Shown: positions 23,943 to 63,057 of the stretch, piece by piece | How positions within the stretch are numbered: the stretch's first letter is position 1 | Layout: every line of letters starts with the position of its first letter | Assembly (NCBI GenBank): GCA_023374045.1 | Contig: JAIOTZ010000248.1 | Location: 1 to 64,000, forward strand | Length of the DNA stretch: 64,000 nt | Source of the DNA: Limonium bicolor | Lineage: Eukaryota; Streptophyta; Magnoliopsida; Caryophyllales; Plumbaginaceae | Reading direction: 5' to 3' | Notes under the pieces: generated by a model | What the model saw: only the letters and a program-made list of their open reading frames with translations | The model's database searches: none | Told to the model about the DNA's origin: nothing | Made by a program: the position numbers and the translations under genes

Positions 23943-24486
23943 CTAAAACTGCCTGAAGGTCAAATTCAAACGTCCGGGTTTCAGATGTGTGGCATTTACC
24001 ACTGCTGATGGTGCGGTATTCAGTTTAATCTTCTTGATACCGTGATAAACATCCTTGATGTCCACCCATAATTAAACACATCTCCTGATTTCAACACTAA
24101 TTTCCTTGTGAGGTCACCACGCTTCTGCTCGCCATATATAAACACTGCGGTATCACCAATGGACCAAGACACCACGGGTACTCCCTTACTTAGAGACTCG
24201 GGTGACTCGTCCTTATCTTGGTGTAACCCCAATCGTCCACCTTCTGGTAGAAGTTCACAACACATAGATCTGCCTTAACGTTCGGAATCGGTTCTGATTC
24301 AACTTGCTGAGCAATTCCCACGGCGTGATTAACGACCGCAAGGAACTCCTCAGGTATACCTGGTACAGTGCTTCATCCTCGGCTCGCACTTCTTGATATG
24401 ACTTGGTGTAAGGATTCCAGTCCTTACCCATGCACATAATCTTCAGTTCATCTTCGAACCACTCGGGTACTCGGGTGTGTAGAAAC
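23943..24486 (-). pseudogene. AlkB-type 2OG/Fe(II) dioxygenase domain, element II (N-terminus lost)
   Basis: Minus-strand reading starts mid-domain at the break with LTR D and proceeds through MCMGKDWNPYTKSYQEVRAE, then a frameshifted part, GRLGLHQDKDESPESLSKG, VPVVSWSIGDTAVF, LVLKSGDV, and ends at a stop after RLNLTFRQF (TAG at 23943-23945). The order and motifs match AlkB family dioxygenases, most like plant ALKBH1-type proteins as I remember them. HxD of the Fe site (HQD) is intact. The distal His is present in the DNA but out of frame. This domain is not a usual part of gypsy elements. It is separated from the protease exon by about 175 bases. Confidence 0.85.
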
Positions 24487-37379: not shown

Positions 37380-37381
37380 TG

Positions 37382-37394
37382 TGGTATCAGAGCC
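37382..37394 (+). promoter_or_regulatory. Primer-binding site of copia element
   Basis: tggtatcagagcc, perfectly complementary to the 3' end of plant initiator Met tRNA, two bases after the LTR. Confidence 0.9.
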
Positions 37395-37424
37395 TTGCTT
37401 AGGCTGACAGTCAATCAACGAGAA

Positions 37425-38505: not shown

Positions 38506-38515
38506 TTCTTTACAG

Positions 38516-38758
38516 GTGGAAGTGAGCGTGGAGATGGACTATGTGTACTTGGACAGAGGGTGCTCCAGAACTGGAAATCCTGACAAATTCAGCTCGCTTT
38601 CATCCTACAAAGGAGGTAAGGTCACCTTTGGAAACAACAACCAAGGTGAAATCATGGGAGTTGGCTCCGTAGGTAACCCCTCCAAGTTTAAGGTAGATGG
38701 AGTCCATCTGGTCACTGGACTTCAACCTAGTCTGTTAAGCATTTTTTCAAATTTGTGA
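38516..38758 (+). pseudogene. pol: Copia protease remnant
   Basis: Reads YVYLDRGCSRT, then FSSLSSYKGGKVTFGNNNQG and GVGSVGNPSKF, the copia aspartic protease region. The catalytic D-S-G is changed to D-R-G. It ends at a stop where a large deletion follows. Confidence 0.75.
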
Positions 38759-38889
38759 AAAGATTCAATTTAGTACTTCTCTCATATCGTTTGCAAAGTT
38801 TTTGATGAACGTACAGGATCTCTAGAACCACAGGACGTAAAGAAGGAAATACATACAAGAAGTGTCTAAATGCCATACACTCTGACGAC

Positions 38890-39390
38890 CAAGTCTGTCT
38901 ATGTGCTCGCTTTCAAGCAGCACCCAAACAGTCCCATATCAAGACGGTCAAGCGAATCTTTCGATACTTAAAAGGAACCAATCAACTTCATCTATGGTAC
39001 ATTCGTTCCCCTATATTATTTTATCTAGTTTTAGTGATTCTGATTGGATAGATTCCCTCCATGATCGAAAGAGTACATCTAGCAATGCAAAATTCCTTGG
39101 TCTATGCTTAGTCTCTTGGCCCTCTACAAACAAATTTTGCTGAGATCAAATTGGCATTTTTTTGTGATAACAATTGCGTATTTAAAATCTCTGAAAACAC
39201 AGTCCAACATTCGAGAACCAGACACATTGAAATACATTTCCATTTCTTGAAGGACTGTGTTGAGAAAAAGCTAATTCAACTTGACTTTGTTCCAATAGAG
39301 GATCCGCTAGCAGATATCTTTGCCAAGCCTCTTCCTACCACCAGATTCGAGGCACTCCGTTCAGCAATTGGAATGACTCAATCAACGTAA
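38890..39390 (+). pseudogene. pol: Copia RNase H C-terminal remnant
   Basis: After the deletion the sequence resumes with HIKTVKRIFRYLKGTNQLHL (end of reverse transcriptase and start of RNase H), then, in other frames, a segment with SDSDWIDSLHDRKST and finally FCDNNCVFKISENTVQHSRT and DPLADIFAKPLPTTRFEALR, a standard copia RNase H C terminus. It has in-frame stops near 39050-39130. Confidence 0.8.
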
Positions 39391-40359
39391 GACGATAGTC
39401 TCTCTCCTTCTTTGGCTGTATAATTAGTAGGTGTTGTTTGCGTACTGTTTGAGTCAATCCGTGTCTCATATTGATAGACTGTGTCTGGTCTTTGTGTCCC
39501 TTTGCGATTTTCTCCAAAAAAAAAAAAAAGGGAGAGAGGACAAAGGCAAGGTACTCCCGCTAACTTGTTTATCCTGAACCAAACAGACCTCGTCCACTCG
39601 GTTATTAAGCCTTTAAGGGTGCTTCATCACCTAACTTCCTAAGGATGCGGAACCTGGGAAAGTTGGCCCAAAGCTGTTACATGGGTGGAGAGAAAAGTCT
39701 GGGGGATGGAGACAGTCCCTGTGTTGCTTAACTTGTAAAATATCTATGCATTGCAAATATAGAGCTATAAAGTCTTCAAAAATACAATGCAAAGCAACAG
39801 GGATCATACAAGTTATGAGTATGTGGCAATGAAAGGTTTTGTGGAATATGACAATACTTCTTGCCCTTGTCGTCCATGAGTATGTTTACATTATGGATAC
39901 AGTCTATTTGTTTTTTTAATGTACGGATTGACTTAGACTCTGTTGCAAACTTCTCTTACTGATGACAGCAAAAAGGGGGAAGTAGTGAATCCCGTCTCTC
40001 ACGAACGAGGCACTCTGGCTATGTTCTGGATTGACTCTGTCTCTGTGTGACTAGGTCTTTGGTGAAGTTTGGATATTCTGTTTCGTTTTTACTCTGTTGG
40101 TACTAGATCATGTTGGTTGCAGTTTTCTTAACTTAGTCATATATTCCCTTTTTCCAATCTCTCTTAGTAGGTCGTGGTTTGCCAAAATTGTGCTCATCGA
40201 TTCAGGGGGACTCTAGCAAGAGTTACTCAATCTATGCTGTGATTAAGGGGGAACCTAGACCTGGACAGGGTTAGTTCCCCAAAATTCTTTTTGCTCTTGT
40301 CTTGTTTTGCAGATTGACTCATTCGGGATTCACAAAAGAGTTTTGCTATCATCAGCAAC
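39391..40359 (+). other. Copia 3' untranslated region
   Basis: No coding domain seen between the RNase H stop and the polypurine tract. It contains an A13 run near 39516 and a second purine-rich aaaaagggggaag at 39970. Confidence 0.5.
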
Positions 40360-40369
40360 AAGGGGAAAC
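40360..40369 (+). promoter_or_regulatory. Polypurine tract of copia element
   Basis: aaggggaaac directly before the 3' LTR start tgttggag. Confidence 0.8.
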
Positions 40370-41091
40370 TGTTGGAGTATGAAGGTGTTGCTGAGATAGT
40401 TAACCAGATCAAAGGAGTCAATCACACTTCTCAAAACAAGACAGAGTCAGTCAACCTCGAAGAGCGAGAGAGTCAATCTATGTGAAGTCATCCATCAGTT
40501 ATGAAATTCAAGGAGCAACGTCCACTAAACCATAACAGTCATCAACTATCATCCTTGGGCCGAAATTCATGCAAAATGTGAGCAAAATCCAAAGCCTTGA
40601 CTTTCTGGTAATTCGAGGAGTCTGTCGGTCAGTTGCGAAAATTAAGGAGCAAGTACAGCAACTACATTGACTTACAACGGTCATCAACGTTCAACTTGGA
40701 CCAAAATTCTCTCAACATGGCACTAATCAGAAGACTTGGCTTCAGCTTCCGAAATATGGCTCCAGCTTCCGAAATTCAAGGAAAGAGTCATTGGTTCCTG
40801 AAATTTCGGAACTGAAAGAGTCAGTCTACTACATACATCAGACGTGAAAGTCATAATTGAACATTGCCAAGTCGTCCAATGGATTGGTAATTGTCCGAAA
40901 TTAAGGGTCAAGGCTTAGCAACGTTCATAAAGAAGATAGGACCGGATTTTAAGCAACTACAACAACGTTCAGATGGCAGAAAATTCGGAAGCAGACTCCC
41001 TCACCGGCTCCACTATATAAGAGAGTAGTAATTTCATTTCTCATTGCAGCTTTCCAGAGAGAATTCATAGCATTTGTTTAGAGAAAGCTTG
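40370..41091 (+). repeat. 3' LTR of copia element, first part
   Basis: Starts tgttggagtatgaagg and matches the 5' LTR up to gagaaagct, where the solo LTR is inserted. It resumes at 45738 with ctttgcctatttt and ends at 46237. Confidence 0.9.
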
Positions 41092-44000
41092 TGAAATACC
41101 CCAAACTTTGGTATGTTGTTTAAATATCAAACTATGGCATGTAAAGGCTAAAAAGTGCCTTAGAAACATCAGTGGACAATTTAAAATATAGTAAAGTGCA
41201 GTAAAGCACTAAGACACAGTACGAGCAAAAACATGCTCTAAGCTATGAGTGAACTTGGTTAGGACCCAAAGAGCCTACCAAGACTTAATAACATTTAATT
41301 ATGATTTTATAAGGCTAATTAAGTCCTTAGGAAACTTTGGTAGACAATGAAACCAAACAAAACACAAGGTAATACCTTAAAGTCAATATGAGCAAAATGT
41401 GCTCTAAGCTTGGGATAAATGTGTATAAGCCTAATGGTCATACCTATGCCATATTTATATGTTAATGAACATATTAAATCAATTACCAAAGAAAACCAAG
41501 CTTGAAAACAAGTCAAACACAAAATGTGCTTTAAGAAGTCTTAAAGCACGTTTTTGAAAAATTGTCTGTAAATGAGTTTTGAATGGCTAAATGTCCATCA
41601 TTACTCTTTAATTAACATGTGTACTATATAGTATCACATTTGGGTGGCTATATCAATGGGAAATCAAAAATTTCACTTCTATGTGCCTTGTTATTGGTGA
41701 ATAGTGATTTTTATAACTAGTTTGTAACATATAATGTTATAAGAGATTAAGTTGGTCAACAAAGACTATGATACCCTTCTACTAATAAGGGGGCCGGTTT
41801 TTGGTAGTAATGAGTCACCAAACATGCTAACTTGTTAAGTAAATAAAGGTGACTCATAGGTTACTATTTGCTTTAAGTTATAAATATCCTTAAAAGCAAA
41901 ACCAATCTCATTCTCCCTACCTTCTTCAATTCCCACGGTTGAAAGGCTTCTCCAACCTCTCTTCTTGCTCTCTTTTACGAGCTGCTACAGCAACACCAAC
42001 ATCACCATTGTTTTCCATCTTTGACCACTTGTAAAACCTAGCTCACTTAACCAAATCAAAAACAAACACCACCATTCTCTTCCTCTCATCAAGCTCTTCA
42101 ATTCTATCCTTTCAAAATCCAAGGGCTCCATTTCGGTGCCAAGAGAATCACCATGGGAGGAGCTAGAGCTCACCTTTTCACATTTCTTGTTCTCCTTTGC
42201 TTCAAGGTAGGAAACTCAAAGAAAAATGACATTTCCTTCATGTTTTGTCATGTCCGAAAATCACTCTTAATGGAGTCATTATATTGCCTTGTTCTAGCTT
42301 CATTCCAAGCTTTCATGGACTAGGAGGAGTCCTCTCTTGATATATATTCAAGCTCTCTTTCCATTCCAAGTAAAACAATCATGTTAATACCTTAAGATAA
42401 TAATGTAACTAGGGTTTACAATGAGATAAGCTTAAAGCTTATATACTCATTTTAATGTTGGTATATGTTTTTAGTTGTTGGCAGGAACCAAATGCCCTAC
42501 CGGTCTACAAGGAAACAAGAAAGAAATTTGTGAGGAAAAGAGGTAAATAAGCTATCTTAATGTGGTTTAATGCCTTAGGAGAAATAAGCTTATAATGCTT
42601 GTTAAAACTACCTAAAGAGCAAATGGTAAATGAGCTAGTAAAATGCTCTCAAGGAGTTTATTAAAGGATATGTATTGTTGGGTGTATTTGCAGGTCAAAG
42701 GCATTATTATGTGGGAAATTCAGTGTTTAAGGTTTATGCAATTTAAGGGCCTAAGAGCCATGCATTTAAGGGCCTAAGTGCCAAGCAATTTAAGTTATGC
42801 ACTATATTGTGATGTAGTGCTTAAAGGGTGAAGTTTGTGTATAATATGTGTTTGATGGATTTTAGGTGTTCTTGGATGAATTAAGGTAAAAACCTAAGTG
42901 TTTGGATGTGGGTATATACTAGAGAAACTATGGCCAAATTGGGAATGTGTAAGAAGTTCTAAGTGTTGTAAGTGAGTTTTGGTGAACTAGGAAGGATTAA
43001 AGTGAATGAATGTTTACTTGAGAGAGAAACATGTATTAAAGTGATTAAGAGTGATGCAAGGATTTAGGCATTATCTTGGAAGTTTTAGAAATCTATGGGT
43101 GTTCTTAAGATGTATTTAAGTCTTGGAGGAGTTTGTTTAAGGTTTAGGTAATGTTGATGTTCAAAGAATAAATGATGTTTAGGTAAGGTTTTGAGTAAGG
43201 AGTTTTAAGAAGTTGTGAAAAGGAGATTTAGTTAGTAGGAAAAGAAGTTGAGAGGTGATGATAAGGTATAGAGGAAACACCTTGGTGTTGTGGACATTAT
43301 AGGTGAAATGCCACCTAGAAATCATAAGGAGAAAACAATGTAAGTGTTAGGAATTTTGTGGAGATATAAGTAAAGGTTTAAGAAATTAGGAACATAGTTT
43401 TGTGAGTGCTTAAGAATATCTTAAGGGTGTGTTTGAAGTGCCAAATGATGTTAGAACACATTAAGAGGCCTTAGGAGAAGTTTGGTGAAGGATTGGCAAA
43501 GTTTGGGTAAGATTAGAAGGCGACCGACCCAGGGGCCGACCCAGTTTTTGGGTCGGTCGAGCCTCTGTAAAATGTTAGGAAATGTTCGGTAATGGACCGA
43601 CCCAGAAGGTTGGGTCGGACATGGGTCGGTCGGGCAAGTTTCAAAGGAAGGAAATGTTCGCACATGGACCGACCCAGAATGGTGGGTCGGACGTGGGTCG
43701 GACGGGCATGTTTATAAGGAAGTAAAAGGGGTCTGTAATGGACCGACCCGATGTGGGTCGGACGGTGGGTCGGTCGGACCAAAAACATGATTTAAGGTAA
43801 GAAATGATATGTGATGATGGGGATTGGTAGGTAATGATGTTATAAGGATGTTATGGACATGTTAGGTGAGTTTAATGACAATAAAGTGGGCTAAAAGTTG
43901 CATTAAAATGTGAGAGTAAAACAAGTTAAAAATGTTAAGTTATATAACTAAGTTAACGGGGGAAAATTAAGCATTGACATTAAATAATCAAGCAAACCCC

Positions 44001-45737
44001 GATGTTAATGAAAACATGTGATGTTAACAGTTGTTCGAGAATTTGCTCGAGGAACATAGGTGGACGTGGTAAAGTGGACTCCGGCGACAGGTATGGTTTT
44101 CTTGCAACCTGTGTCCTAACGGATTACACCGGCTTGTATGCCAATATGTTTTCTTGAGTGTTTGCCACCTTATAAGATTAAAACATGTAATGAGTTTACA
44201 GTAATTCATTTATGTGGCGAATTTGGTATCCGATGCCGTTTAACCTCAATATGTGTTAAACCTTAGCTAACTAAACTAGGAACACATGAGTGATCGGTAT
44301 TCGGAGTTGACGGCCCAAACCTTGGGAACGTGCTAACCACGGCTATGTGTGAGTTAGTTGGATATTGTTGTTGTATGCAAGTGTGTGAACCTTCCTTGTG
44401 TGCTTAACTCGGGATGATACCGTATGGTTGTGGATGTGGTAGGCTCCATAATGGATCTCTACCACTTAATATTTAATGTATGTATACTAATGGGGGTGAG
44501 GAGTCCGGTCTGTTCCGGCCACGCGTGTGAGGATGGGGGTTCGTGCCATTATAGGTTCGACCCTCTGCGTATGTTAAGGTTGTCTTCCCATTGGGTTTCC
44601 AACTTTCCCCTTAGCTTAACCAAAGCTATATTACTGACTCACGTCGGGCCACGGGGGCATACTAATGGTTATGTTATTACGGTGTGCTTGGGATTACTAT
44701 ATCCGACACACCTTTGGTATAAGTTAACCGTTCTATATAACCGGACGGTAACGAGGATGGTAACGAGCTTAACATGGGATTGGCAAAAATCCCTAGGCTC
44801 ACATGGTATACTAACTATGGTGGAAGGTTCCTTGTGAGAACCGTTTTTATGGTGTGTGTAATGTTATAATGCTATGCGAATTCCCTTGCTATGCTTTGGT
44901 ATATATATATATATTGGATGATTTTAAGTGAGTGCAAACTCGTCATGTGTACATCGAAACAAGAAAGGCTTATTATGTTTTGATATTGTGTGGAATGAGT
45001 TATGTTGTAGGATATGGAATTGTGGATCATGGAAATGAATCCCAGTTTGCGACAAGAGGCTTTAGGATAACCCGATTATTGGGTACATGTCGTTTGCTAA
45101 GGAAGTAGCTCCGTTTGGAGGAGAGCCACTCTAGGCTTAAGAAATCATTGGATGGTTGGTTAAGTGTGGATGTGTTGGTTATTGGTTGAGCCCAGTGGGG
45201 CGAAAATTATGTGAGTTATATTAATGGTTTGTATGCATGATTTAAATATGATCAACTGCATGCTAAGACGACAATTAGTCGTGCGTGGCCCGGTAGCATG
45301 CGGGCTGCGGGATTACCATACCAGCAAAGGTGCTGAGCCCCTTGGGGCCACCCCTTTCTCTTCTTTTTCCTATTTCAGGTACGAAGTGCTGGAAGCCGTT
45401 CGAGAGTAGGACGGTGCAGATGTTATACATGGGTAGCCATTTAAATGGCATGAATGTGTTAGGCGTAGTAAGACCGAAATTGTTATCGGCAGTAGTTGTA
45501 AATACTCGGTACAGGGGAAGTGTATGTATATAATAAATGTTGAAGATGGAATGAGTATTGTATTGAGTAATTGCTCGGGAATCTAGTCCATCAGACCGAT
45601 ACAAATGTACATGAATTAGCCTTGTTAGCCACGAAGGTGGTTAACGGCGTGTAACACCATTGGAATAAGTAATGTGATGAGTTGAGTTTCCGCTGCAGAT
45701 TGTTATTATGTGATGGTTGTTGGATGGGGTGTTTTAC
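41092..45737 (+). repeat. Solo gypsy LTR E inside copia 3' LTR
   Basis: Starts tgaaataccccaaac and ends ggggtgttttac (decayed terminus). It is flanked by gcttg and ctttg, a one-difference duplication of the empty-site sequence agctttgcc seen in the 5' copia LTR. Length is 4646 bp with no coding domain. It shares the cacgcgtg (44521), gagccccttggggc (45335) and cagaccgatac (45591) modules. It is a close homologue of the inverted solo LTR at 53178-57740. Confidence 0.88.
43517..43790 (+). repeat. Hairpin array in LTR E (4 units)
   Basis: Four units with stems gaccgaccca...tgggtcggtc or tgggtcggac, about 70 bp apart. The stem sequence differs from the ggtccgggac type but the layout is the same. 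Confidence 0.75.
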
Positions 45738-46243
45738 CTTTGCCTATTTTAGAGAGAGAGAGAACGAAAAAGAGAGAGAGAAGTACTAGTTTCGTTTGTG
45801 CATATCGATAGAGTCTTTCTAGGTAGGACCTAGTTTTCACTACACTTATCATTGAGCTGATCAGATATTGTATTGGGTGAGTGAGTGAAAACCACGAAGT
45901 AGATCTCATCTACTGAGTGGGCATTATAAGTTGTTTTGTTTTGACCAGGAAATAAAATAACTTATATTGTGTATCCTGCTGAGTTCGACAGAGTCCTCCA
46001 CCTTTCGAGTGTTAATCCATTTAGCACCGCTAAGTCTATCTTACTTTACTACCTTGAGCAACTGCTTCCGCGCACTTAGTTTCGACTAAGTGTTTCAACG
46101 TCTCAAGTGTTTTCACAGACGAAGTTCGATTGAGTGCCTCTACATCACAGAGTGCTTCTCACTTACGAAGGCTGATTGAGTCAAACCAACTCTTAGACTC
46201 ACACTTGGGTTGGTTTGAGTTACCACCCGATCCTACAAAGTTT

Positions 46244-48353
46244 TAAGTGTCTAAATGAGTTTAGGTGAACTAGGAAGTGTTAGAAGTGACTAGGTATATT
46301 ACTAGGGAAAGAAGGTGTATTAAGGTGTTTTTAGAGTACAAGAAGAACTTAGGCACTATCTTAGAGATTGTAGAAATCAAATGAGTGTTTTGGAATACAC
46401 CAAAGTCATTTTGGAGTGTTTGAGACTTATGCAAACTTTGGTAAACTAGGAGAAAGTATGAACTTGTGAAGGGATTTCAAGAATGGCATAAGGGAATTTG
46501 GTTTGTAAGGAACATGCATGAAAGATGATGTTAATGGAGAGGAAAATACTTTGGCATAATGGTTATTATAGGCATGAAACACCACTTGGAAATCTAAGGA
46601 GAAAACATTATAAGTGTTAGGAGTTTTAGTAAGAAATGAACAAGTGTTTAAGAGTGTAGAAAATGAACTTTCCTACACGTCCGAACTTCCGTCCGAATTT
46701 GGAAGTCCGGACGTGCCCTGTTGCGTTAAGCTTTCTGAGTCTCGGCCACTGTCCGAACTTCTGTCCGACCCTTGAAGTTCGGACACGACCATCACTTTTC
46801 TCTGATTTTTCCTCGACCTATGTCCGAACTTAGGAAGATCGGACACAAGTTCGGACATACGTCTGGGCTTACCCTTTGAGTCTCGACTTGCATCCGAACT
46901 TGGGAAGCTCGGACACAAGTTCGGACAGGCCACTGTGTTGGCCAAAAATGTTATTTAAGACTAGAAAACGTTGTCTAAAAATGGTGATTAGTTAGTAATG
47001 ATGATGTGAGGTTGTCTAAGACATGTTAGGTGAGTTATAATGACAATTAAAAGGGTGAAAGGTTATAACAAGCGTGAAAATAAAATAACTAGTTACGTGA
47101 AGTAGTAAGTTAACAACGAACTAGTGCGTTAATTAACCGACGTTACTGAATGTGTATAGGATTCTCCAACGGTGGAAACCAGTCGAAGCAAGGACCAAGG
47201 TATGGTTTTCTTGCAGCCTGTTGTCTACCGGTTTACACCGGCTTGTGTGTTGTTTGTTTTTTGTGTGTGTGTTTATGACCTTGTAAGACTTAAATCATGT
47301 AACGAGTGTACAATTGTTAAATATTATTACATTGTTAAGTATGACTCTCTCTTCCCTTGTGTGTGTCTAACAAGACTTAACCTATTGTGTGTGATTGGTT
47401 CATTGAGTTCAATGTTGAACTTCTAACTAGTGCTAACGGGGGAAGTGAGGAGTCCGGTCTGTTCCGCCACACGTGTGAGTATGGGAGTCGATGTCATAAC
47501 CGGTTCGATTCTCTTTGTATGTTATGGTTTTTTTCCAATTTGGTTTCCAACCTTCCCTTTAGCTTAACCAAGGCTACTTTACTGACTCACGTCGGGCCAC
47601 AGGGGCATACTATGTGTTTTCGGTGTGCTTGGATCACTATATCCGAGGCACCATGTGTTAAGTTATACGTTCAATCTAACAGGGCGGTAACGAGTTATGT
47701 AACGAGCTTAGCATGAGTATGGCAACATTCTCTAGGCTCTCCATGGGAACTAATTGTATTGGTTCACTTCCTAAAGGAATTGTTCTTGTATGTTATGTGT
47801 GATGTTGTGTACAATACCCATGTTATGATATATGTATATGTTGTATGTTTTTAAAAGAATGCCATGTCATCATGACAATTAGTTGCGCGTATCCCGGTAG
47901 CCAATGGGTTGTGCGTTAACCATACCAGCCAAGGGTTGCTGACCCCCTCGGGGGCTCCATATTTCTTTTACTGCAGGATGAGGATCAAAGAAGCAGAATG
48001 GCTTTAGATTCTAGGATGCAGGATTACTTTTGATTACTTTTGGATGTTAAGCCCGGGATGCGCCTGTGCTCCCGTGGCAATATATTTTGGTACCATTGTA
48101 TACTGTGACGGTTGTTGGTGTACAGTTTACAGTTATGAATGTAGCAACAAACTCGGTATTTTGTTAATGTATTAAAAGTTATTAGTTCTATGCTCGGGAG
48201 TCTGATCATCAGACCGATACACTTTATTTATTCTGCCTTGTTAACCACGTGGGTGGTTAACGGCGTTGTAGCACCGAATCGTTTAGTTATTGTTTAGTTG
48301 TTAATTCCCGCTGCGATTTCAAGTATTGTTAAGTGCGTAGTAGGGGTGTTACA
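46244..48353 (+). repeat. 5' LTR of element IV, second part
   Basis: Continuation of the LTR after the copia insertion, ending gtagtaggggtgttaca. Matches 60968-63057. It includes cacacgtg-like and gggccac modules, the gaccccctcggggg hairpin at 47941 followed by cttttactgcag, catcagaccgatac at 48204 and gttaaccacgtgggtggttaac at 48239. Confidence 0.9.
46678..46936 (+). repeat. Hairpin array in 5' LTR of element IV (4 units)
   Basis: Units have stems such as gtccgaactt...aagttcggac, separated by gagtctcg spacers. A near-identical array lies in the 3' LTR at 61400-61650. Confidence 0.75.
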
Positions 48354-48358: not shown

Positions 48359-48370
48359 TGGTATCAGAGC
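48359..48370 (+). promoter_or_regulatory. Primer-binding site of element IV
   Basis: tggtatcagagc, five bases after the 5' LTR end; initiator Met tRNA primer. It is followed by an inverted repeat gagcgaagtatcgctc that could form a leader hairpin. Confidence 0.92.
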
Positions 48371-49248: not shown

Positions 49249-49341
49249 GTAATGAACTACAGTATAAGAGAATAAGTATGTACAGTATGTTAATGTGATG
49301 TGAGTTTGTTTAGCGGGGCATAACTAACACCCTAAATATAG
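49249..49341 (+). other. Intron 1 in element IV gag
   Basis: 93 bases from gtaatg to aaatatag, with a branch-point-like taactaac about 15-20 bases before the acceptor and AT-rich composition. The frame stops inside it. Removal joins CAG to GAG in phase 0 and keeps gag open on both sides. Confidence 0.7.
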
Positions 49342-49600: not shown

Positions 49601-49679
49601 GTAAATAATAAATTCCACTACCGAATCCTAGTGTGTGTTATTACTTTGTGAAGTATGTACTAAGTGTGTGATGTGTTAG
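49601..49679 (+). other. Intron 2 in element IV gag
   Basis: 79 bases from gtaaat to gtgttag with a branch-like tactaag about 20 bases upstream of the acceptor, T-rich, containing stops in the gag frame. Splicing restores a split codon (G + CA). Confidence 0.7.
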
Positions 49680-50024
49680 CAGCTAGCACGGGCTCTGGAC
49701 CGGAGCGCCACTATTACTGTAAGTGGTGTAACGGAGACCACCCCGGCAAGGACTGCAAGGGCAATGATGTGCAGTGCCGATACTGCAAAAAGATGGGGCA
49801 CCGCGACTATGAGTGCTGGCAGAACCCGAACAGCAGAAACTACAGGCCTAAGGGGCAGTGGAAGGGTAAGGCCACCGCGACCACCGATGGCCCGAAGACG
49901 GCGAATCAGCCACCCCCAGATCAGAGGTACACAGATTCCCAGAAGGGGAAGGGGTCGGGACCTAGCAAGGCCACCCTGCATGTGGTGGACCGGTCTGAGG
50001 AGCCAGGGCCCTCTTCTAGACCAG
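49680..50024 (+). CDS. gag: Element IV gag exon 3: two zinc knuckles
   Basis: Nucleocapsid part. The first knuckle is YCKWCNGDHPGKDC (CX2CX3HX4C, shortened by one residue) and the second CRYCKKMGHRDYEC (canonical CX2CX4HX4C). It is followed by a P/S/G-rich tail to PSSRP. It ends with the first base of a codon at ccag before gtactg. If the next intron is retained, translation stops two codons later (TAA at 50032-50034), giving Gag alone. It would bind the element RNA during packaging. Confidence 0.85.
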
Positions 50025-50168: not shown

Positions 50169-50910
50169 GAACCTTCAATATTTGTTATCCAATCCCACCC
50201 ACACCAAACCCTGAAGAAACCACCATCAGCATCACCGACTTTCCAATGGAGCAATGTCAGGTCATCCAACCAGGTATGATACTCTTAAATGGATACCTGA
50301 CACCGGAAGCAAAAATCCACATCATCCAACGATGCGACGAACTGGGAGCAGAACCTGGAGGTTTCTACACACCCGAGTACCCGAGCGGATCGAAGATGAA
50401 ATTGAAGATGATGTGCATGGGTAAGGACTGGAACCCTTACACCAAGTCATATCAAGAAGTGCGAGCTGAAGATGGAGCAACTATACCAAGTATACCTTAG
50501 GAGTTCCTCGCGGTCGTTAACCACGCCGTGGGAATTGCTCAGCGAGTTGAAACGGATTCAATTCCAAGTGTTAAAGCAAATCTATGTATTGTGAACTTCT
50601 ACCAGAAAGGTGGACAGTTAGGGTTACACCAAGATAAGGACGAGTCACCCGAGTCTCTAAGTAAGGGAGTACCCGTGGCTTGTCTTGGTCCATTGGTGAT
50701 ACCGTAGTGTTTGTGTACGGCGAGCAGAAGCGTGCTGATCTCGCAAAGAAGCTAGTGTTGAAATCAGGAGATGTACTAGTCATGGGTGGGCAGTCAAGGA
50801 TGCTATTCCACGGCATCAAGAAGATCAAACTGAATACCGCACCATCGGCAGCGATCAATGCCACACACATGAAACCCGGACGTTTGAATTTGACCTTAAG
50901 GCAGTTTTAA
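50169..50910 (+). CDS. AlkB-type 2OG/Fe(II) dioxygenase exon, element IV
   Basis: After a short lead (FNICYPIPPTPNPEE) the domain starts at the internal Met at 50246: QPGMILLNGYLTPEAKIHII, GGFYTPEYPSGSKMKLKMM, GKDWNPYTKSYQEVRAED, GQLGLHQDKDE, SIGDTVVF, LVLKSGDVLVMGGQSRMLF, HGI, then RLNLTLRQF and stop (50908-50910). Length is about 220 residues, close to E. coli AlkB (216). The Fe ligands H and D (50627-50635), the distal His (50809-50811) and the two arginines of RLNLTLRQ are present. Damage: one GAG-to-TAG change near 50500 and one inserted base near 50675. AlkB enzymes remove methyl groups from nucleic acids. The fusion to Gag and a role on element RNA or cDNA are inference. Confidence 0.88.
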
Positions 50911-51093: not shown

Positions 51094-51660
51094 GCTGTGC
51101 ACTCGGAACGGGAGGTATACTGAGTGTCTGCAATGAGGCAGAAGCCGGCAAGAGCGGCACAATCCTCACCGGTACCTTTCCAGTCAATGGCGTGGACGCT
51201 TTGATCTTGTTCGACTCCGGAGCTTCTCATACATTCATTTCGCTATCTTTTGCGAAGAGGCTGGGGTTAGACGGTGATGAGATGCCAGACTTCCTAGTCA
51301 CTCTCCTGTCGAAAGAGCGGATCAGGTGTACCCGCTACCACCGAGATGTTGTTGTACGAATCAGAGATGAAGAGTTTCCGATCAACCTGATAGAGTTCGA
51401 CGGACTTGGTTTCGATGTGATTGTCGGGATGAACTGGTTGGAGCGGTACAAGGGCAGAATCCTGTGTGCCCCCAAGCATCGAATGCTCTTCGGAGTCCGG
51501 TATGGGGTTACAATATCTTACCGCCAGAGGCCCAGGGAGCCTTCGACTCAGATCATCACCGCATGGCTATGTGTCGTGAACTACGACGGGGAATGATGTA
51601 TACCTCTGCTATGTCCAGGATATAGAGAGAGACCCAGAGTTTAGTCCTGATGTGCCGGTA
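51094..51660 (+). pseudogene. pol: Protease region of element IV pol
   Basis: From the acceptor the frame reads CALGTGGILSVCNEAEAGKS and LTGTFPVNG, then the protease signature LFDSGASHTFIS and GFDVIVGMNWLERY. It processes the Gag-Pol polyprotein. The open frame runs to 51596, then shifts. Catalytic D-S-G is intact. Confidence 0.8.
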
Positions 51661-52570
51661 GTGTCGGAGTTTCCTTATGTATTTCCTAAGGAACTGCCGG
51701 CATTCCGCCTAGCACGAGAGGTTGAGTTGAGATTGATTTGGTTCGGGCACCGGACCAATTGCGAAGGCGCCCTACCGTATGGCTCCAGCAGAAATGACCG
51801 AGCTCAAGGAGCAGCTGAGAGACTACTCGACAAGGGTTTATCCGCCCTAGCATTTCACCATGGGGAGCGCCGGTCCTCTCCGTGAAGAAGAAGGACGGTA
51901 GCCTCCGCCTGTGTATTGACTATCGAGAGCTGAATGCAGTTACGGTGAAGAACCGTTACCCTTTGCCACGCATCGACGACTTATTTGATCAATTGAAAGG
52001 GGGCATCAGTATTCTCCAAGATAGATCTACGATCTGGATACCATCAGATTGCCATCCGTGACAGTGACATTGAGAAGACAGCAATCAGAACCAGATATGG
52101 ACATTATGAGTTTACGGTTATGCCGTTTGGTTATCCAATGCACCAGCCAAGTTCATGGACTAATGAACCGCTTGTTCCAAGATCAGTTGGACAAGTCAGT
52201 GGTAGTCTTCATCGACGATATACTTGTGTACTCGAAATCGAGAGGTGAGCACGAAAGCCACCTGAGAAATGTGTTACAAACATTGAGAAAGAATCAGTTG
52301 TATGCGAATTTTCAAAGTGTGAATTTTGTTGAACCAAGTATCCTTTCTTGGGCATGTGATTTCTAAGCCGGATCACTGTTGATCCGGCAAATATAGATGC
52401 AGTGCGCACCTGGCCTAGGCCGAAGACAGTTACCGATTTAGGAGCTTCCTCGGTCTGGCAGGTTATTATAGGAGGTTTGTGAAGGACTTCTCCAGCGTCT
52501 CGAAGCCGATGACTTCCTTGATGAAGAGGATGCTCCATTCGAGTGGACAGATGACTGTGAGAGTTCTTTT
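51661..52570 (+). pseudogene. pol: Reverse transcriptase of element IV
   Basis: The N-terminal part reads VVSEFPYVFPKELP, then [20 protein letters not shown] and [16 protein letters not shown] (about 51881-51990). The palm motif [11 protein letters not shown] is at about 52208-52240, followed by [10 protein letters not shown]. Several single-base indels split it into at least four frames. All catalytic aspartates are recognisable, but no full-length protein can be made. Confidence 0.85.
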
Positions 52571-53172
52571 TAGAGTCTCAAGGATGCTCTGACATCTGCA
52601 CCAGTCCTGACTTTACCAGACGGTCCAGATGGGTTTGAGGTCTATTGCGACGCATCAGGCAGAGGAGAGTATGGGTTGTGTGTTGATGCAACACGGGAAG
52701 GTCATAGCATACGCCTCCGACAGCTGAAGAAGCATGAAGAAGAACTACCCTACCCACGACTTAGAATGGGTCCCATTGTCTTCGCATTGAAGATATGGCG
52801 ACATCACTGTATGGGGTAAGTGTGACAATCTATTCCGACCACAAGAGGTTAAAGACTTGTTCACTCAAAGGGAGTTGAACATGAGACAAAGAAGGTGGGT
52901 CGAGTTTCTAAACGATTACGACATCAATCTGCAGTATAAGGAGGGTAAGGCAAATGTGGTAGCTGACGCATTGAGTCACAGAGCACACTCTCTCCATTCG
53001 CTAGTCTCTCATTCTAGCTTGGTTGAAGAGGTGCGGAGTGCTCAGATGATGGATCTGTATATGTTGGAGATCAGGCAGAAGCTTATCGATGGCACATTCG
53101 AGGGTCAGAAGTACGACTCAGACTCCACGATGATGACCTGATTAGGCTGAATGGTCGACTGTGTATTCCGAG
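52571..53172 (+). pseudogene. pol: RNase H and linker of element IV
   Basis: Begins [17 protein letters not shown] (first RNase H Asp) and ends with [20 protein letters not shown] and [10 protein letters not shown], then the linker [20 protein letters not shown]. The middle is frameshifted. It is interrupted in the linker to integrase by the solo LTR (target agtag). Confidence 0.85.
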
Positions 53173-53177
53173 GAGTA

Positions 53178-56100
53178 GTGTAACACCCCATCCAACAACA
53201 AAACAAATAAAACAATCTGCAGCGGAAAATATACTTCATCACATTACTTAACTCGTTGGTGTTACACGTCGTTAACCACCCACGTGGCTAACAAGGCTAT
53301 TACATAAACATGTACCGGTATGATGGACTAGATTCCCGAGCGACTACACATTACTGAACCTCCATTAACAATAGAAACAACATACACCTTCCAACTGTAC
53401 CGAGTAGTATTTACAAACTGATGCCGATAACAATTTCGGTCTTACTACACCTACTGTACATTAATAACTTAAATAATTACCCAGGTACAACATCTACCCC
53501 GTCCTACCTTGAACGGCTTCCAGCTCCTCGTACCTGAAATAGGAAATGTAGAGAAAGGGTGGCCCCCAAGGGGCTCAGCACCTTTGCTGGTATGGTAATC
53601 CCGCAGCCCACATGCTACCGGGCCACGCACAACTAATTGTCGTCTTAGCATGCGGTTGATTATATTTAAATCATGCCATGTAACTAAAACACACAACACT
53701 AACACTTCGCCTCAATGGGCTCAACAAACAGGTAACACATCCTTACTTGATAAGTCACTCATAGTGTTCATTACCCTATAGTGTTTCTCCTCTGATGGAG
53801 CTACTTCCTAATAGACGACACTTACCCATTATCGGGTTTATCCTTAAACGCCTCTTATCACAAACTGGGATTCGTATCCATGATCCACATACTCCACATT
53901 TTACAACATATAACATGCATCACATAACAACACATAACAACACTTTTCACGTTTCAACGTGCACATAATAACATCGCAATAGAAATTGCATTACAACAAT
54001 ATCACATAACATAACGGGAACGGTTCTCTTAGGAACCGACCCAAACATTGTTAATTCACTGGTGAGCCTAGAGAATGATGTCACCCCCATGATAAGCTCG
54101 TTATACAACACTCATTACCGTCCTAATAGTCGACGAGTAACTTAAGTTAAGATGGTTTGGGTTTTGTGGCCCGAACACGCCACACAAACACATGTTCCCC
54201 CCTAAACCGATCATAAGTCAGAATAGCTAAGCTTTGGAGTAAGCTAATGGGAGATCATAACCCGTGAGGGAAACAACCATTACAGAGAGAAGGGTAAGGC
54301 TAAAAAGGATACCCACTCCCAAACAACGTGCGACCGCCTAACCGGATTCCTCACCACTGTTAGTACATACTTACTTTTATATTATTAGAGCCCCACTATG
54401 GAGTCTATCACATCTACACACCATACAGTATTACAACTGGGTTAAACATACAAGGGAGATCCCTACATACACACACAAATATCACACATTTAACACACGC
54501 GCATAGCCGTGGTTAGAACGCCCCATGGTTCGGGTCGTTTAATCCGAATACCGAACTCTCATGTGATCCTAGACTCAGTTAACTAAGGTTAACACTTCTG
54601 AGGTTAAATGGTATCGGAGTTGAACACGCCACATAAATGAATTACTGTAAACTCATTGCATGTTTTATCTTACAGTGTGGCAACATACAGAAAAACACAT
54701 TGGCATACAAGCCGGTGTAATCCGGTAGGACCCGGGTTGCAAGAAAACCATACCTGTCACTGGAGTCCACTTTATCATGTCCACTTATGTTCCCTCGAGC
54801 AACTCTCGAACAACTGATAACATCGCATGTACTTTTATTAACATCAGGGTAACATGATTGTTTAAAGTCTAATGCTTATAACTTTTCCCCGTTAACTTAG
54901 TTACATAACTTCACATTTTAACTTGTTTTCTTTTACATTTTAATACAACTTTTCCCCCACTAAATTGTCATTATAACTCACTTAACTTGTCCTTAACAAT
55001 CTTATAACATCATTACTTAATAATCCCCATCATCCTATAACCTTAAACAGATTTTTTTTTTTACATACTTTGGGCCATCCGACCCACCGTCCGACCCACA
55101 ACTGGTCGGACCGTTCCATAAACTTTTCCCGTCTTTTAAATACACCGGTCCGACCCATGTCCGACCCATACATCTGGGTCGGACCATTCCAGAGACTTAG
55201 AGCACACACGTCCGACCCATGTCCGACCCAAGCCCTCTGGGTCGGACCGTTCCAGAACCTATTACTGACGTCTAACAGAGGCTGTCCGACCCAAACTTGG
55301 GTCGGACCCCTGGGTCGGACGCCACCAAAATATGCCCAAACATTGTCAAATCCTCTCCAAACTTCTCTTAAGGCCTCCAATTGTATCTTAACATCATTTG
55401 GTACACTTATATCCTCATACAACATCCATGAAACTCATTATCTATCACCTTAAACACTTACTCATTTCATACCGAAATTCCTAACACTTATGTTATTTCC
55501 TTCTTAGTTTTCCAAGTGGTATTTCATACCTATGATAACCACTATGCCAACTATGTTCCCCACCACTACTACATCATCTCCCAAGCATCTTTTCTTTCTA
55601 AACAACTCCTTGAACATCTTTACAAGTTTATAGCTTCCCATGCAACAAATCACTTCATCCCTTTTCACCAACAATACACAAGTCTTAAACAATCAATCTC
55701 ACCATGAATCTTGAAATGTCCCAATGCATTCTTTTGCATTCTAAATCCTCTAGAACATTGCCTAAGCCCTTTTTACATCTTTAAACACCATGATACATTT
55801 TCTTCCACTAGTTGAACACTTAACCATTTTAAACATTTCCTAACTCACCAACTCATTTTAAACCCTTAGAACTTCTTGTTTATTACCTAAATTTTGACAT
55901 GAACTCTCCTAGAACATTACTAACCAAACACATTGTCTTCACCATCAAACAACCAAGAACACTAAAATCCATCAAACACATTCTTATACACAAACTTCAC
56001 ACATTTAGCACTACATCACATTATAGTGCATAATTTAAATTGCATGGCACTTAGGCCCTTAAATAACATGGCTCTTAGGCCTTAAGATGCATGAATCATA

Positions 56101-58640: not shown

Positions 58641-59015
58641 TGTTTCGTTTTGGCCAGAAAGGCAAGTTGAGCCCAAAATATGGGGCCTTATGTTGTGACG
58701 GAGCGATCGGTCCGGTAGCTTACAGACTTGATTTACCCGCCCGAGCTGGGCAGGTACATGATGTATTTCATGTGTCCCAGTTGAAGAAATATATGTCTCA
58801 TCCGTCTCATGTACTTCGCCGAAAGGCTAACTTTAGAGCCGACCATGCGATCAGTGGAGACTCCGGTACGGATTCTGGATACTAAGACTCGAGACACTCG
58901 CCATAAGTCTGTGAAACTGGTGAAGGTTCTCTGGTCTAACCAGGACATTGAGGAGGCCACTTGGGAGCTGGAAGATAAGATGAAGGTGAAGTACCCGTCA
59001 TTGTTTACTTCTTAG
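58641..59015 (+). pseudogene. pol: Integrase C-terminal domain and chromodomain of element IV
   Basis: Reads [21 protein letters not shown], then after a frameshift [20 protein letters not shown] and the chromodomain core VKVLWSNQDIEEATWELEDK, ending at TAG 59013-59015. Together with element II this places the family among the chromoviruses (Tekay/Del-like by motif pattern). Classical chromodomain aromatic-cage residues are only partly kept. Confidence 0.85.
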
Positions 59016-59292: not shown

Positions 59293-62200
59293 TGAAATAC
59301 CCCCAACCTAGTTTATTTGTTTAAACACTACACTAAAAGGTGTAGTAAGACTAAAAAGTCTTAAAACATTAGTAAACAATTTAAAAACATAAAAACACAA
59401 TCAATAAAGGCCAAAATGTGCTCTAAGCTTGGATAATCTTGGTTAAGACCTAATAAGCTTATCAAGACTTCATTTATATATTAATGAATAAATAAAACCA
59501 ATTACCAAAGAAACCAAGCTTGAAAACAAGTTAAAACACAAAATGTGCTTTAAGGAGTCTTGAAGCACGTTTTTGAAAATTTGTCTTGTAATGAGTTTTT
59601 GAATGGCTAAATGTCCATCATTACTCTTTAATTAATATGTGTACTACTTAGTATCACATTTGGAAGTCTATATCAATGAGAAATCAAAAATTTCACATCT
59701 ATGGTGCCTTGTTTTAGTGAATAGTAACTAAAATAAGCTAGTTTTAACATATGTTTATATAAGTAATTAAATTGCCCAACAAGACAAAATACCCTTATTA
59801 TAATAATAGGGGCCGGTTTTCTTATAAGGGATGAGTCCCCCTTGTTAATTTGATAAGATAGAAATTGATAAAGTAAATCACTATTTAATTTTACTTAAAT
59901 ATCTAAACAAACTAAATCTTCTTCATTCTCTCATTTCTCTTGTTCCCACCGTCTTCTACCTTCCTTCTTGCTCTCATTCACGGTTTGCTACAGCCCACAC
60001 CAAAACTCCATCTTTGACCACTTATATCTCTTAGCTCATTTGCCAAATCAAATTCTAAGACACCATTCTCTTTCTCTCTCATCAAGCTCTTCAATCCTAT
60101 CTTCTCAAAATCTCAAGAGCTCCATTTTGGTGCCAAGAAGAATCTCCATGGGAGGAGCTTGAGCTCATCTTTCACATATTGTTGTTATCCATTGCTTCTA
60201 GGTAAGGAACTCAAAGAAAAATAACATTTCCTTCATGTTTGTGTGTTGTCGAAAATCACCATTGTGGTGTCTTTACCTTGCTTGTTTTAGCTTCATTTGA
60301 ATCTTCCAAGGGCTTGGTGGAGTCCTCTCTTGTTACATATCCAAACTCTCTTTCCATTCCAAGGTAAAACAATCATCTTAATGCTTTAAAATAATATATG
60401 TAACTAGGGTTTACAATGAGGTGAAGCATAAAGCTTGTATACTCATTTATCATTTGTATAATGTTTAGAAGTTGACAAGCAACTAAAAGCCTTGCCAATT
60501 TAGTCAAGGAAACAAGAAAGAAGTTTTTGAGGAAAAGAGGTAAATATGCTAACCTAATGTGGTTTAAAGTCTTAGGAGAAATGAGCTTATATTGCTTATG
60601 AAAATGACTTATGGAGCCAATGGTAAATGACTTAGAAGAATGATCTCAAGGGCTTAGTTAAAGTAAAGACATATGTATTGTTGATTGTATTTGCAGGTCA
60701 AAGGCAAATATAATGTGGGAAATTCAGTGTTTATGGTTTATGCACTTTAAGGGCCTAAGAGCCATGTTATTTAAGGGCCTAAGTGCCGAGCAATTTAAAT
60801 AATGCACTATATTATGATGTAGTGTAGTTTGGGTGAAATTTGTGTATAAGAAGGTTGTTGATGGATTTAAGTGTTCTTGGATGTTCAATGGTGAAAACTA
60901 TGTGCTTTGGTGTGACAAGATGTTAGTAGAACCATGTCAAAAAAATTAGGTAATAGATAGAAGTTTTAAGTGTCTAAATGAGTTTAGGTGAACTAGGAAG
61001 TGTTAAAAGTGACTAGGTATATTACTAGGGAAAGAAGGTGTATTAAGGTGTTTTTAGAGTACAAGAAGAACTTAGGCACTATCTTAGAGATTGTAGAAAT
61101 CAAATGAGTGTTTTGGAATACACCAAAGTCATTTTGGAGTGTGTTGAGACTTATGCAACTTTGGTAAACTAGGAGAAAGTATGAACTTGTGAAGGGATTT
61201 CAAGAATGGCATAAGGGAATTTGGTTTGTAAGGAAACATGCTTGAAAGATGATGTTAATGGAGAGGAGAATACTTTGGCATAATGGTTATTATAGGCATG
61301 AACACCACTTGGAAATCTAAGAGAAAACATTATAAGTGTTAGGAGTTTTAGTAAGAAATGAACAAGTGTTTAAGAGTGTAGAAAATGAACTTTCCTACAC
61401 GTCCGAACTTCCGTCCGAATTTGGAAGTCCGGACGTGCCCTGTTGCGTTAAGCTTTCTGAGTCTCGGCCACTGTCCGAACTTCTGTCTGACCCTTGAAGT
61501 TCGGACACGCCATCGCTTTTCTCTGATTTTTCCTCGACCTATGTCCGAACTTAGGAAAATCGGACACAAGTTCGGACATACGTTTGGGCTTACCCTTTGA
61601 GTCTCGACTTGCGTCCGAACTTGGGAAGCTCGGACACAAGTTCGGACAGGCCACTGTGTTGGCCAAAAATGTTATTTAAGACTAGAAAACGTTGTCTAAA
61701 AATGGTGATTAGTTAGTAATGATGATGTGAGGTTGTCTAAGACATGTTAGGTGAGTTTAATGACAATTAAAAGGTGAAAGGTTATAACAAGCGTGAAAAT
61801 AAAATAACTAGTTACGTGAAGTATTAAGTTAACAACGAACTAGTGCGTTAATTACCGACGTTACTGAATGTGTATAGGATTCTCCAACGGTGGAAACCAG
61901 TCGAGCAAGGACCAAGGTATGGTTTTCTTGCAGTCTGTTGTCTACCGGTTTACACCGGCTTGTGTGTTGTTTTGTTTTTCTGTGTGTTTATGACCTTGTA
62001 AGACTTAAATCATGTAACGAGTTTACAGTTGTTAAATATTATTACATTGTTAAGTATGACTCTCTCTTCCCTTGTGTGTGTCTAACAAGACTTAACCTAT
62101 TGTGTGTGATTGGTTCATTGAGTTCAATGTTGAACTTCTAACAAGTGCTAACGGGGGAAGTGAGGAGTCCGGTCTGTTCCGGCCACGCGTGTGAGTATGG

Positions 62201-63057
62201 GAGTCGATGTCATAACCGGTTCGATTCTCTTTGTATGTTATGGTTGTTTTCCAATTTGGTTTCCAACCTTCCCTTTAGCTTAACCAAGGCAATTTTACTG
62301 ACTCACGTCGGGCCACAGGGGCATACTATGTGTTGTTTCGGTGTGCTGGATCACTATATCCGAGGCACCTTGTGTTAAGTTATCCGTTCAATCTAACAAG
62401 GCGGTAACGAGTTATGTAACGAGCTTAGCATGAGTATGGCAACATTCTCTAGGCTCTCCATGGGAACTAATTGTATTGGTTCACTTCCTAAAAGGAATTG
62501 TTCTTGTATGTTATGTGTGATGTTGTGTACAATACCCATGTTATGATATGTATATGTTGTATGTTTTTAAAAGAATGCCATGTCATCATGACAATTAGTT
62601 GCTCGTATCCCGGTAGCCGATGGCTGCGCGTTAACCATACCAGCCAAGGGTTGCTGACCCCTCGGGGGCTCCATATTTCTTTTACTGCAGGATGAGGATC
62701 GAAGAAGCAGAATGGCTTTAGATTCTAGGATGCAGGATTACTTTTGATTACTTTTGGATGTTAAGCCCGGGATGCGCCTGTGCTCCCGTGGCAATATATT
62801 TTGGTACCATTGTATACTGTGACGGTTGTTGGTGTACAGTTTACAGTTATGAATGTAGCAACAAACTCGGTATTTTGTTAATGTATTAAAAGTTATTAGT
62901 TCTATGCTCGGGAGTCTGATCATCAGACCGATACGCTTGTATTTATTCTGCCTTGTTAACCACGTGGGTGGTTAACGGCGTTGTAGCACCGAATCGTTTA
63001 GTTGTTAATTCCTGCTGCGATTTCAAGTATTGTTAAGTGCGTAGTAGGGGTGTTACA
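59293..63057 (+). repeat. 3' LTR of element IV
   Basis: 3765 bp, tgaaataccccc to ggggtgttaca, uninterrupted. It reproduces the split 5' LTR and shows the original sequence at the copia target (gataga-agttttaag near 60958). Contains the hairpin array (61400-61650), gccacgcgtg at 62181, the gacccctcgggggc hairpin at 62656 with tttactgcag, catcagaccgatac at 62920 and gttaaccacgtgggtggttaac at 62954. Confidence 0.92.

What the first reader, a model, noticed from the sequence alone, without database searches (positions are those of the whole stretch)
50169..50910. An AlkB-type demethylase domain carried by a Ty3/gypsy retrotransposon
A complete AlkB-like domain of about 220 residues lies between the gag zinc knuckles and the protease, a place where plant chromoviruses normally have nothing. 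Fe ligands HxD and distal His, and the RxNxTxRQ end, are all present. The sequence is closest, from memory, to plant ALKBH1-like proteins (GRLGLHQDKDES, GDVLxxGGxSR, RPGRLNLTFRQ), and it has no intron, suggesting capture of a host mRNA. Some plant RNA viruses carry AlkB domains thought to protect their RNA from methylation. A retroelement doing the same to its RNA or cDNA is an attractive inference. I know of no standard retroelement family defined by this domain.
Basis: partly seen in the sequence, partly recalled or inferred. Interest (0 to 1): 0.93.

Follow-up and report, generated by a model that had tools for sequence, protein, structure and literature searches.

The report
Jumping gene with spliced-in AlkB demethylase
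A jumping gene with thousands of copies in one genome, likely a plant's, carries an AlkB-type enzyme gene inside an intron, and some copies preserve the two exact joins that alternative splicing would make, so the enzyme is likely produced fused to the particle's shell protein, where it would strip methyl groups from the element's RNA, primer tRNA or DNA copy.

Summary
At 50169-50910 an AlkB domain (PF13532) lies between the zinc knuckle and the protease of a chromodomain-bearing Ty3/gypsy element (34481-63057, TSD TATAC). This copy is broken (a TAG and a frameshift). A second, truncated family copy in the window carries it too (23943-24486, minus strand). The host genome (2.92 Gb, unnamed, plant by inference) holds 4149 matches to the unspliced AlkB acceptor of a related subfamily. 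Forty of the 60 copies fetched (all high-scoring) have an open, in-phase AlkB exon, at dN/dS 0.144. The domain is plant ALKBH1-type (fold match OsALKBH1, TM 0.93), unlike the ALKBH5-like domain of orchid Ogre/Tat elements.

One donor after the zinc knuckle faces two acceptors, AlkB or protease, in the same phase. Retention ends Gag within 21 codons. The genome preserves both exact junctions: 9 Gag-AlkB and 12 Gag-Pro places. So the element likely makes Gag, Gag-AlkB and Gag-Pro-Pol by splicing and would carry the demethylase on Gag into the particle. Transcripts, activity and substrate are untested.

New variant of a known kind.

The parts
34476..34480 (.). Target-site duplication TATAC, left (right copy 63058-63062)
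   Evidence: Read
34481..36168 (+). 5' LTR of element A, first part (starts TGAAATACC); interrupted by nested insertions
   Evidence: 94.3% to the 3' LTR, 35 mismatches in 1713 columns
36169..46237 (.). Nested insertions inside the 5' LTR (borders approximate)
   Evidence: Self-comparison
46238..48353 (+). 5' LTR of element A, second part (ends TGTTACA)
   Evidence: 97.1% to the 3' LTR, 29 mismatches in 2123 columns
48359..48369 (+). Primer binding site TGGTATCAGAG (initiator tRNA-Met type; the match to the tRNA is recalled)
   Evidence: Read; chromovirus PBS type in passages of PMC3605345
48567..49248 (+). gag exon 1 (capsid; frameshifted in this copy)
   Evidence: PF03732 1.4e-06 for 48788-49063; donor at 49249
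49249..49341 (+). Intron 1 (GT..AG)
   Evidence: Read; in fetched copies donor GT in 50 of 55 scored, acceptor AG in 54 of 55 scored; exactly absent in L096, L145 and L153
49342..49600 (+). gag exon 2
49601..49682 (+). Intron 2 (acceptor ambiguous by 3 nt)
   Evidence: Donor, GT in 54 of 56 scored copies; exactly absent in L096, L120, L145 and L153; acceptor in element A placed by phase
49683..50024 (+). gag exon 3, zinc knuckles, ends SRP(G)
   Evidence: PF13917 0.0026, below cut-off; CxxCx4Hx4C in 45 of 59 copies scored
50025..51093 (+). Intron 3: one donor (GT at 50025) and two acceptors (AG ending 50168 and 51093)
   Evidence: exact junctions elsewhere in the genome
50169..50910 (+). AlkB exon (ALKBH1-type 2OG-Fe(II) oxygenase), stop TAA 50908-50910; broken here by TAG 50498-50500 and a frameshift at about 50675-50685
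51094..51596 (+). Protease exon (start of pol)
   Evidence: PF08284 5.1e-26 for 51096-51593; acceptor AG at 51092-51093
51597..53178 (+). Reverse transcriptase / RNase H region, decayed
   Evidence: 88.3% nt to copy B over 50361-53178; RT and RNase H profiles matched on the related copy in L102
53179..57740 (-). LTR-like insertion into pol, opposite orientation, TSD AGTAG (53174-53178, 57741-57745)
   Evidence: Ends read
58851..59012 (+). Chromodomain at the end of the integrase
   Evidence: PF00385 25.6 bits, cut-off 25.1
59293..63057 (+). 3' LTR of element A
23943..24486 (-). AlkB domain of second family copy (element B), 5' end cut off at an LTR-like start at 24487; frameshifted
   Evidence: PF13532 7e-13 for 24020-24274; 88.5% nt to element A
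20351..23774 (-). Protease to integrase of element B, decayed
   Evidence: PF24626 2.7e-22 for 20351-20740

Best explanation
It is an ALKBH1-type AlkB exon inside the third intron of a chromodomain-bearing Ty3/gypsy retrotransposon family whose genomic copies preserve two exact alternative exon joins, gag to AlkB and gag to protease, so the element likely makes Gag-AlkB and Gag-Pro-Pol by splicing one RNA and the Gag-tethered enzyme would remove methyl groups from the element's RNA, primer tRNA or cDNA in the particle. Shown by sequence: the domain, its catalytic residues, the intron borders, the common donor with two acceptors in the same phase, the exact junctions elsewhere in the genome, the purifying selection and the copy number. 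Inferred: that the junction copies come from spliced RNA, translation of the fusion, packaging with Gag, catalytic activity, and the substrate. By relation to rice ALKBH1 (6mA preferentially in single-stranded or unpaired DNA, PMC10469495) and to ALKBH1 as tRNA m1A58 eraser (cited in PMC7475180), single-stranded cDNA or the initiator tRNA primer is at least as likely a target as m6A of the genomic RNA.
For: Domain and subfamily. Fold of the intact relative P0013 (pLDDT 93.5): best hits OsALKBH1, TM 0.93-0.94. TE-type AlkBs form one clade, 98/98, joined to 26 plant ALKBH1-type proteins at 100/100 against 6 bacterial rows. Selection: dN/dS 0.144 over 780 pairs of 40 open copies; differences by codon position 7683/5382/22688; the stretch before the first conserved Met 0.344, the rest 0.116. 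Splice sites: intron 3 donor GT in 56 of 59 copies scored, AlkB acceptor AG in 59 of 59, protease acceptor AG in 55 of 57. Junctions: 12 genome places with the Gag-Pro join (8 without mismatch) and 9 with the Gag-AlkB join (2 without mismatch), 0 for each reversed pattern. L153 has all three introns exactly removed, L154 only intron 3. L096 lacks introns 1 and 2 between LTRs with 19 mismatches in 4138 columns and TSD TTAGA. Intron 3 retained gives a stop within 3-21 codons in 57 of 57 scored, element A included.
Against: No transcript or protein of the element was seen. Junction copies are rare (21 places against 4149 unspliced AlkB acceptors). Only 2 of the 21 junction places were read in context, both of the Gag-Pro kind. 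Twenty of 60 copies fail my open-exon filter, 4 of them by a shared shift that breaks the Gag-AlkB frame. Activity and substrate are untested. No Gag-AlkB fusion protein was recognised in the 120 rows listed, of which I fetched and read 4.
Confidence: 0.72

Rival explanations
1. The AlkB ORF is expressed on its own, from an internal ATG, and not as a Gag fusion.
For: The database relatives P0013 and P0123 are predicted from the conserved Met; constraint before that Met is weaker (0.344 against 0.116); four copies (L085, L087, L088, L096) break the Gag-AlkB frame before it while the rest stays open.
Against: The stretch before that Met (xFNICYP...) aligns to host PFDIC and is still constrained; the acceptor AG is kept in 59 of 59 scored copies; nine genome places have the exact Gag-AlkB join.
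Confidence: 0.15
2. The target is m6A on the element's genomic RNA, as proposed for the orchid elements, countering host m6A control of retrotransposon RNA.
For: Orchid Gypsy AlkB demethylates m6A ssRNA in vitro (PMC9289625); ONSEN RNA is controlled by m6A and ALKBH9B (passage in PMC12786077).
Against: The domain here is closest to plant ALKBH1 in sequence and fold, not to the ALKBH5-like type of the orchid elements; plant relatives are named DNA N(6)-methyladenine demethylases in databases.
Confidence: 0.35
3. Passenger capture without function, kept by hitch-hiking.
For: Many copies, including both in the window, are broken.
Against: dN/dS 0.144; related proteins P0007, P0013, P0123, P0124 from other sources, open and in the same clade. 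The catalytic motifs in 40 of 40 open copies count for less, as these were chosen as open with a set ending.
Confidence: 0.05
4. The junction copies arose by recombination or deletion and not by splicing.
For: They are few (21 places); some share changes and may be duplicates (for example the two C2 places).
Against: Exact exon-exon joins at GT..AG borders for introns 1, 2 and both forms of 3, in different combinations (L096, L120, L145, L153, L154), on several chromosomes.
Confidence: 0.04

Closest known systems
Phalaenopsis Ty3/Gypsy (Ogre/Tat) elements with 2-ODD/AlkB ORF2 (Gypsy_Pa_2799, PMC9289625)
   Same: Plant Ty3/gypsy LTR retrotransposon family, abundant, carrying a captured AlkB domain with conserved catalytic residues
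   Different: There ALKBH5-like, a separate ORF2 of 565 aa, one Gag-Pol ORF, nested in Tat, 6.4 kb LTRs, tRNA-Arg PBS, m6A activity shown; here ALKBH1-type, exon between gag and protease, chromodomain, about 3.8-4.2 kb LTRs, tRNA-Met-type PBS, gag with introns
Plant ALKBH1-type proteins (ALKBH1B/C/D), rice OsALKBH1 (5xeg/5xoi)
   Same: Fold (TM 0.93-0.94) and catalytic motifs; 52% identity of P0013 over the structure alignment
   Different: Most host rows aligned have a longer N-terminal region with an NREKR-like segment that the element lacks; element rows share KR.D and N.TH signatures
Plant chromoviruses (Tekay, Reina, Galadriel, CRM)
   Same: Chromodomain after integrase, tRNA-Met-type PBS, 5-bp TSD
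   Different: Gag-pol as one continuous ORF in the beet chromoviruses described (PMC3605345); here three introns and an AlkB exon
Ogre and EVADE, plant LTR elements with functional introns (PMC12786077; Ogre also PMC9289625)
   Same: Splicing sets which proteins are made
   Different: Ogre: putative intron between Gag and Pol; EVADE: splicing makes a short Gag message; no alternative exon with an enzyme is mentioned in the passages seen

Membership tests
AlkB / 2OG-FeII_Oxy_2 (PF13532) | Profile match | tested here: met
   two of three pieces of A above cut-off; P0007, P0013, P0123, P0124: 127-158 bits
AlkB / 2OG-FeII_Oxy_2 (PF13532) | HxD...H and RxNxTxR | tested here: met
   In the window; 40 of 40 open copies, the end motif partly by my own filter
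AlkB / 2OG-FeII_Oxy_2 (PF13532) | Demethylase activity | not testable with these tools
   Needs an enzyme assay
Plant ALKBH1-type | Nearest solved fold and sequence are plant ALKBH1 | tested here: met
   Beyond OsALKBH1 and E. coli AlkB the TM-scores do not separate animal ALKBH1 (0.57-0.63), ALKBH3 (0.65) and ALKBH5 (0.57); plant ALKBH9/10 were not put in a tree
Chromovirus | Chromodomain C-terminal to integrase | tested here: met
   25.6 bits against 25.1, just above the cut-off
Chromovirus | PBS to initiator tRNA-Met | tested here: inconclusive
   TGGTATCAGAG at 48359 and in 5 of 6 copies; the match to the tRNA is recalled, not computed
Chromovirus, Tekay clade | RT phylogeny with Tekay | not tested
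   No reference RT set at hand; long LTRs are suggestive only (recalled)
Orchid AlkB Gypsy family (Tat/Ogre) | ALKBH5-like domain in separate ORF2, single Gag-Pol ORF | tested here: not met
   ALKBH1-type exon between gag and protease; three introns
Spliceosomal introns in gag | GT..AG borders and exact loss in retrocopies | tested here: met

The most novel reading that the evidence does not exclude
A retrotransposon uses a splicing switch to load a demethylase onto its own capsid protein: Gag-AlkB is built into the particle and erases methylation on the nucleic acids that reverse transcription depends on, most strikingly m1A58 of the initiator tRNA primer or 6mA on nascent single-stranded cDNA. 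That would be a packaged nucleic-acid methyl eraser, gained separately from the orchid case.
Probability: 0.3. Interest if true: 0.95.

Novelty: new variant of a known kind. Interest (0 to 1): 0.85.

Why it matters
Together with the orchid elements it points to at least two separate captures of nucleic-acid demethylases by Ty3/gypsy elements, from different AlkB branches, which suggests that host methylation really limits retroelements. The splice layout predicts a Gag-bound, packaged enzyme and gives testable junctions. Exact intron-less joins in the genome serve as a fossil record of alternative splicing in a chromodomain element, a group described in beet as having one continuous gag-pol ORF.

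Tried and rejected
Private insertion into one copy: rejected. Viral source: no relative confirmed in viral contigs for P0013 or P0007 (2 and 5 pattern stretches, none confirmed). Bacterial source: the 80 genome-contig loci kept of 578 are at most 47% identical, and the 6 bacterial rows used form a separate clade. A first tree (62 rows) did not give one TE clade: two very long bacterial rows disturbed it and one fell among the TE rows. I rebuilt with 40 rows, partly other bacterial rows, fewer host and element rows and trimmed ends, so the 98/98 rests on that choice. Host support there is only 74/87, so where among plants the capture happened is open. Long proteins of Smallanthus, Deinandra and Artemisia that scored high could have been Gag-AlkB fusions but are repeated host-like AlkB domains. 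LTR dating gave no LTR pair for 1 of 6 copies (L087). L150 is open for 245 aa but failed my end filter. Not obtained: host ALKBH1 gene and its introns, number of AlkB-less family members, shifted-junction control, name of the host.

Full report
The finding. At 50169-50910 the window has an AlkB domain between the zinc-knuckle end of gag and the protease of a Ty3/gypsy element. Searched as separate pieces it matches PF13532 and, best of all solved structures, the rice protein 5xeg/5xoi, which the fold search names OsALKBH1. The copy is broken by one stop and one frameshift. Element A runs from 34481 to 63057 between TATAC repeats. Its LTRs differ by 64 mismatches in 3836 aligned columns, gaps not counted. 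Its 5' LTR and its pol are interrupted by other insertions. A chromodomain closes the integrase, just above the Pfam cut-off (25.6 against 25.1 bits).

Not private. Element B on the minus strand keeps the domain at 23943-24486, 88.5% identical over 550 columns. Three profile searches of 5.8 billion proteins scored about 8000 candidates each and listed 120 each (6890, 2188 and 3792 passed their different E-value limits). Among the listed rows four of the element type stand out, P0007, P0013, P0123 and P0124, all from unnamed ena or lgn contigs whose surroundings I could not see. The host genome is held (2.92 Gb, no name; a plant by inference from the nearest relatives and the element type). P0013 found 150 scored matches out of 50036 first-look candidates, at 73-77% identity; by my count 137 of the 150 have no stop inside. 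These are the best-scoring 150, so they over-represent open copies. A pattern for the unspliced AlkB acceptor of this subfamily occurs 4149 times within 2 mismatches, its reversed control 0 times.

Architecture. In 60 fetched copies (rows 1-20, rows 21-60; the other 90 were not fetched), similarity to element A covers the exons and drops in the introns (20 copies), and the borders are GT and AG at three introns. For intron 3 the donor is GT in 56 of 59 scored, the AlkB acceptor AG in 59 of 59, the protease acceptor AG in 55 of 57; for intron 1 the donor is GT in 50 of 55 and for intron 2 in 54 of 56, the exceptions including copies that lack the intron. Intron lengths vary by single bases. Both intron 3 acceptors continue the gag frame in the same phase. 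If intron 3 is kept, a stop follows within 3-21 codons in 57 of 57 scored, element A included. Exons 2 and 3 are free of stops in 34 of 56 and 31 of 59 scored, so many copies are decayed in gag. The layout predicts three proteins: Gag, Gag-AlkB and Gag-Pro-Pol.

Splicing recorded in the genome. L096 and L145 lack introns 1 and 2 exactly and L120 lacks intron 2. L096 sits between LTRs with 19 mismatches in 4138 columns and TSD TTAGA. The exact Gag-Pro join, with intron 3 and AlkB gone, occurs at 12 places within 2 mismatches, 8 of them without mismatch. The exact Gag-AlkB join occurs at 9 places within 2 mismatches, 2 of them without. Reversed patterns gave 0. I read two of the 12 Gag-Pro places: L153 lacks all three introns exactly, L154 lacks only intron 3. 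I read none of the 9 Gag-AlkB places in context, and two of them (both on C2) share the same changes and may be one event duplicated. The simplest explanation is reverse transcription of alternatively spliced element RNA. A shifted-junction control was prepared but never ran.

Age and selection. LTR pairs of 5 of 6 copies examined differ by 11/4157, 31/4155, 26/3753, 19/4138 and 63/4159 mismatches per aligned column, gaps not counted. With a recalled rate of 1.3e-8 per site per year this is roughly 0.1-0.6 million years. Forty of 60 copies have an AlkB exon open from acceptor to stop by my filter. Their mean dN is 0.031 and dS 0.211, ratio 0.144. The part before the first conserved Met, which would have to be reached by splicing, gives 0.344, the rest 0.116. 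The 780 pairs are not independent, and open copies were chosen. In an earlier set of 18 copies, 130 pairs with dS above 0.05 gave 0.17. Pieces of element A, a broken copy, against L081 give 0.157 and 0.247, and copy B 0.277; two further pieces are saturated.

What it is. P0013 folds with pLDDT 93.5. The best structures are OsALKBH1 (TM 0.93-0.94), then E. coli AlkB (about 0.82). Animal enzymes follow at weaker E-values and are not separated by TM-score: ALKBH1 0.57-0.63, ALKBH3 0.65, ALKBH5 0.57. In a 40-row tree the element sequences form one clade (98/98) inside a plant ALKBH1-type group (100/100 against bacteria); an earlier 62-row tree with very long bacterial rows did not resolve them as one clade. 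Plant relatives carry database names such as DNA N(6)-methyladenine demethylase ALKBH1D.

How it most likely works. Splicing to the AlkB acceptor would put the enzyme at the C-terminus of Gag, behind the zinc knuckles, so a share of Gag in each particle would carry it. Substrate: rice ALKBH1 acts on 6mA preferentially in single-stranded or unpaired DNA (abstract of PMC10469495), and ALKBH1 is cited as eraser of tRNA m1A58 (passage in PMC7475180 citing Liu 2016). The element's PBS is of the initiator tRNA-Met type (match recalled; chromovirus PBS type in passages of PMC3605345). Single-stranded cDNA and the tRNA primer are therefore serious candidates beside m6A of the genomic RNA. None was tested.

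What is known. PMC9289625 (outline and parts 1-4 of 7 read) reports an ALKBH5-like domain in Phalaenopsis Ogre/Tat-type elements with in vitro m6A demethylase activity, and no such domain in the other plants of its 121-genome screen. PMC12786077 (passages) says plant LTR elements generally lack introns, with Ogre and EVADE as exceptions. PMC3605345 (passages) describes one continuous gag-pol ORF in beet chromoviruses. Seven searches of the held library showed, in the rows listed (20 of 129, 20 of 91, 3 of 3, 15 of 703, 10 of 29, 7 of 7, 10 of 39), no title or abstract start about an ALKBH1-type domain in a retroelement or an AlkB exon in a chromovirus; most subscription journals and preprints are not in that library.

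Noticed in passing
6509-14509: Tandem array with a period of about 1250 bp (9652-14509, plus a separate unit at 6509-7192), 95-97% alike, likely a satellite.
   Followed up: no
53179-57740: LTR-like stretch of 4.56 kb in opposite orientation inside pol with TSD AGTAG, likely a solo LTR of a related family.
   Followed up: partly
26001-28000: GC content falls to 23% here against 32-51% in the other 2-kb steps.
   Followed up: no
L085, L087, L088, L096 (start of AlkB exon): These four copies share a one-base shift near the start of the AlkB exon that breaks the Gag-AlkB frame while the rest stays open; they may be one sublineage that spread without the fusion.
   Followed up: no
49679-49688: Intron 2 acceptor in element A is ambiguous by 3 nt (two AG in a row, both in phase).
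   Followed up: no
Proteins P0196-P0199, P0122 (Smallanthus, Deinandra, Artemisia): Asteraceae proteins with two or more ALKBH1-type domains or parts of them in a row, one listed with an RRM domain (P0197).
   Followed up: no
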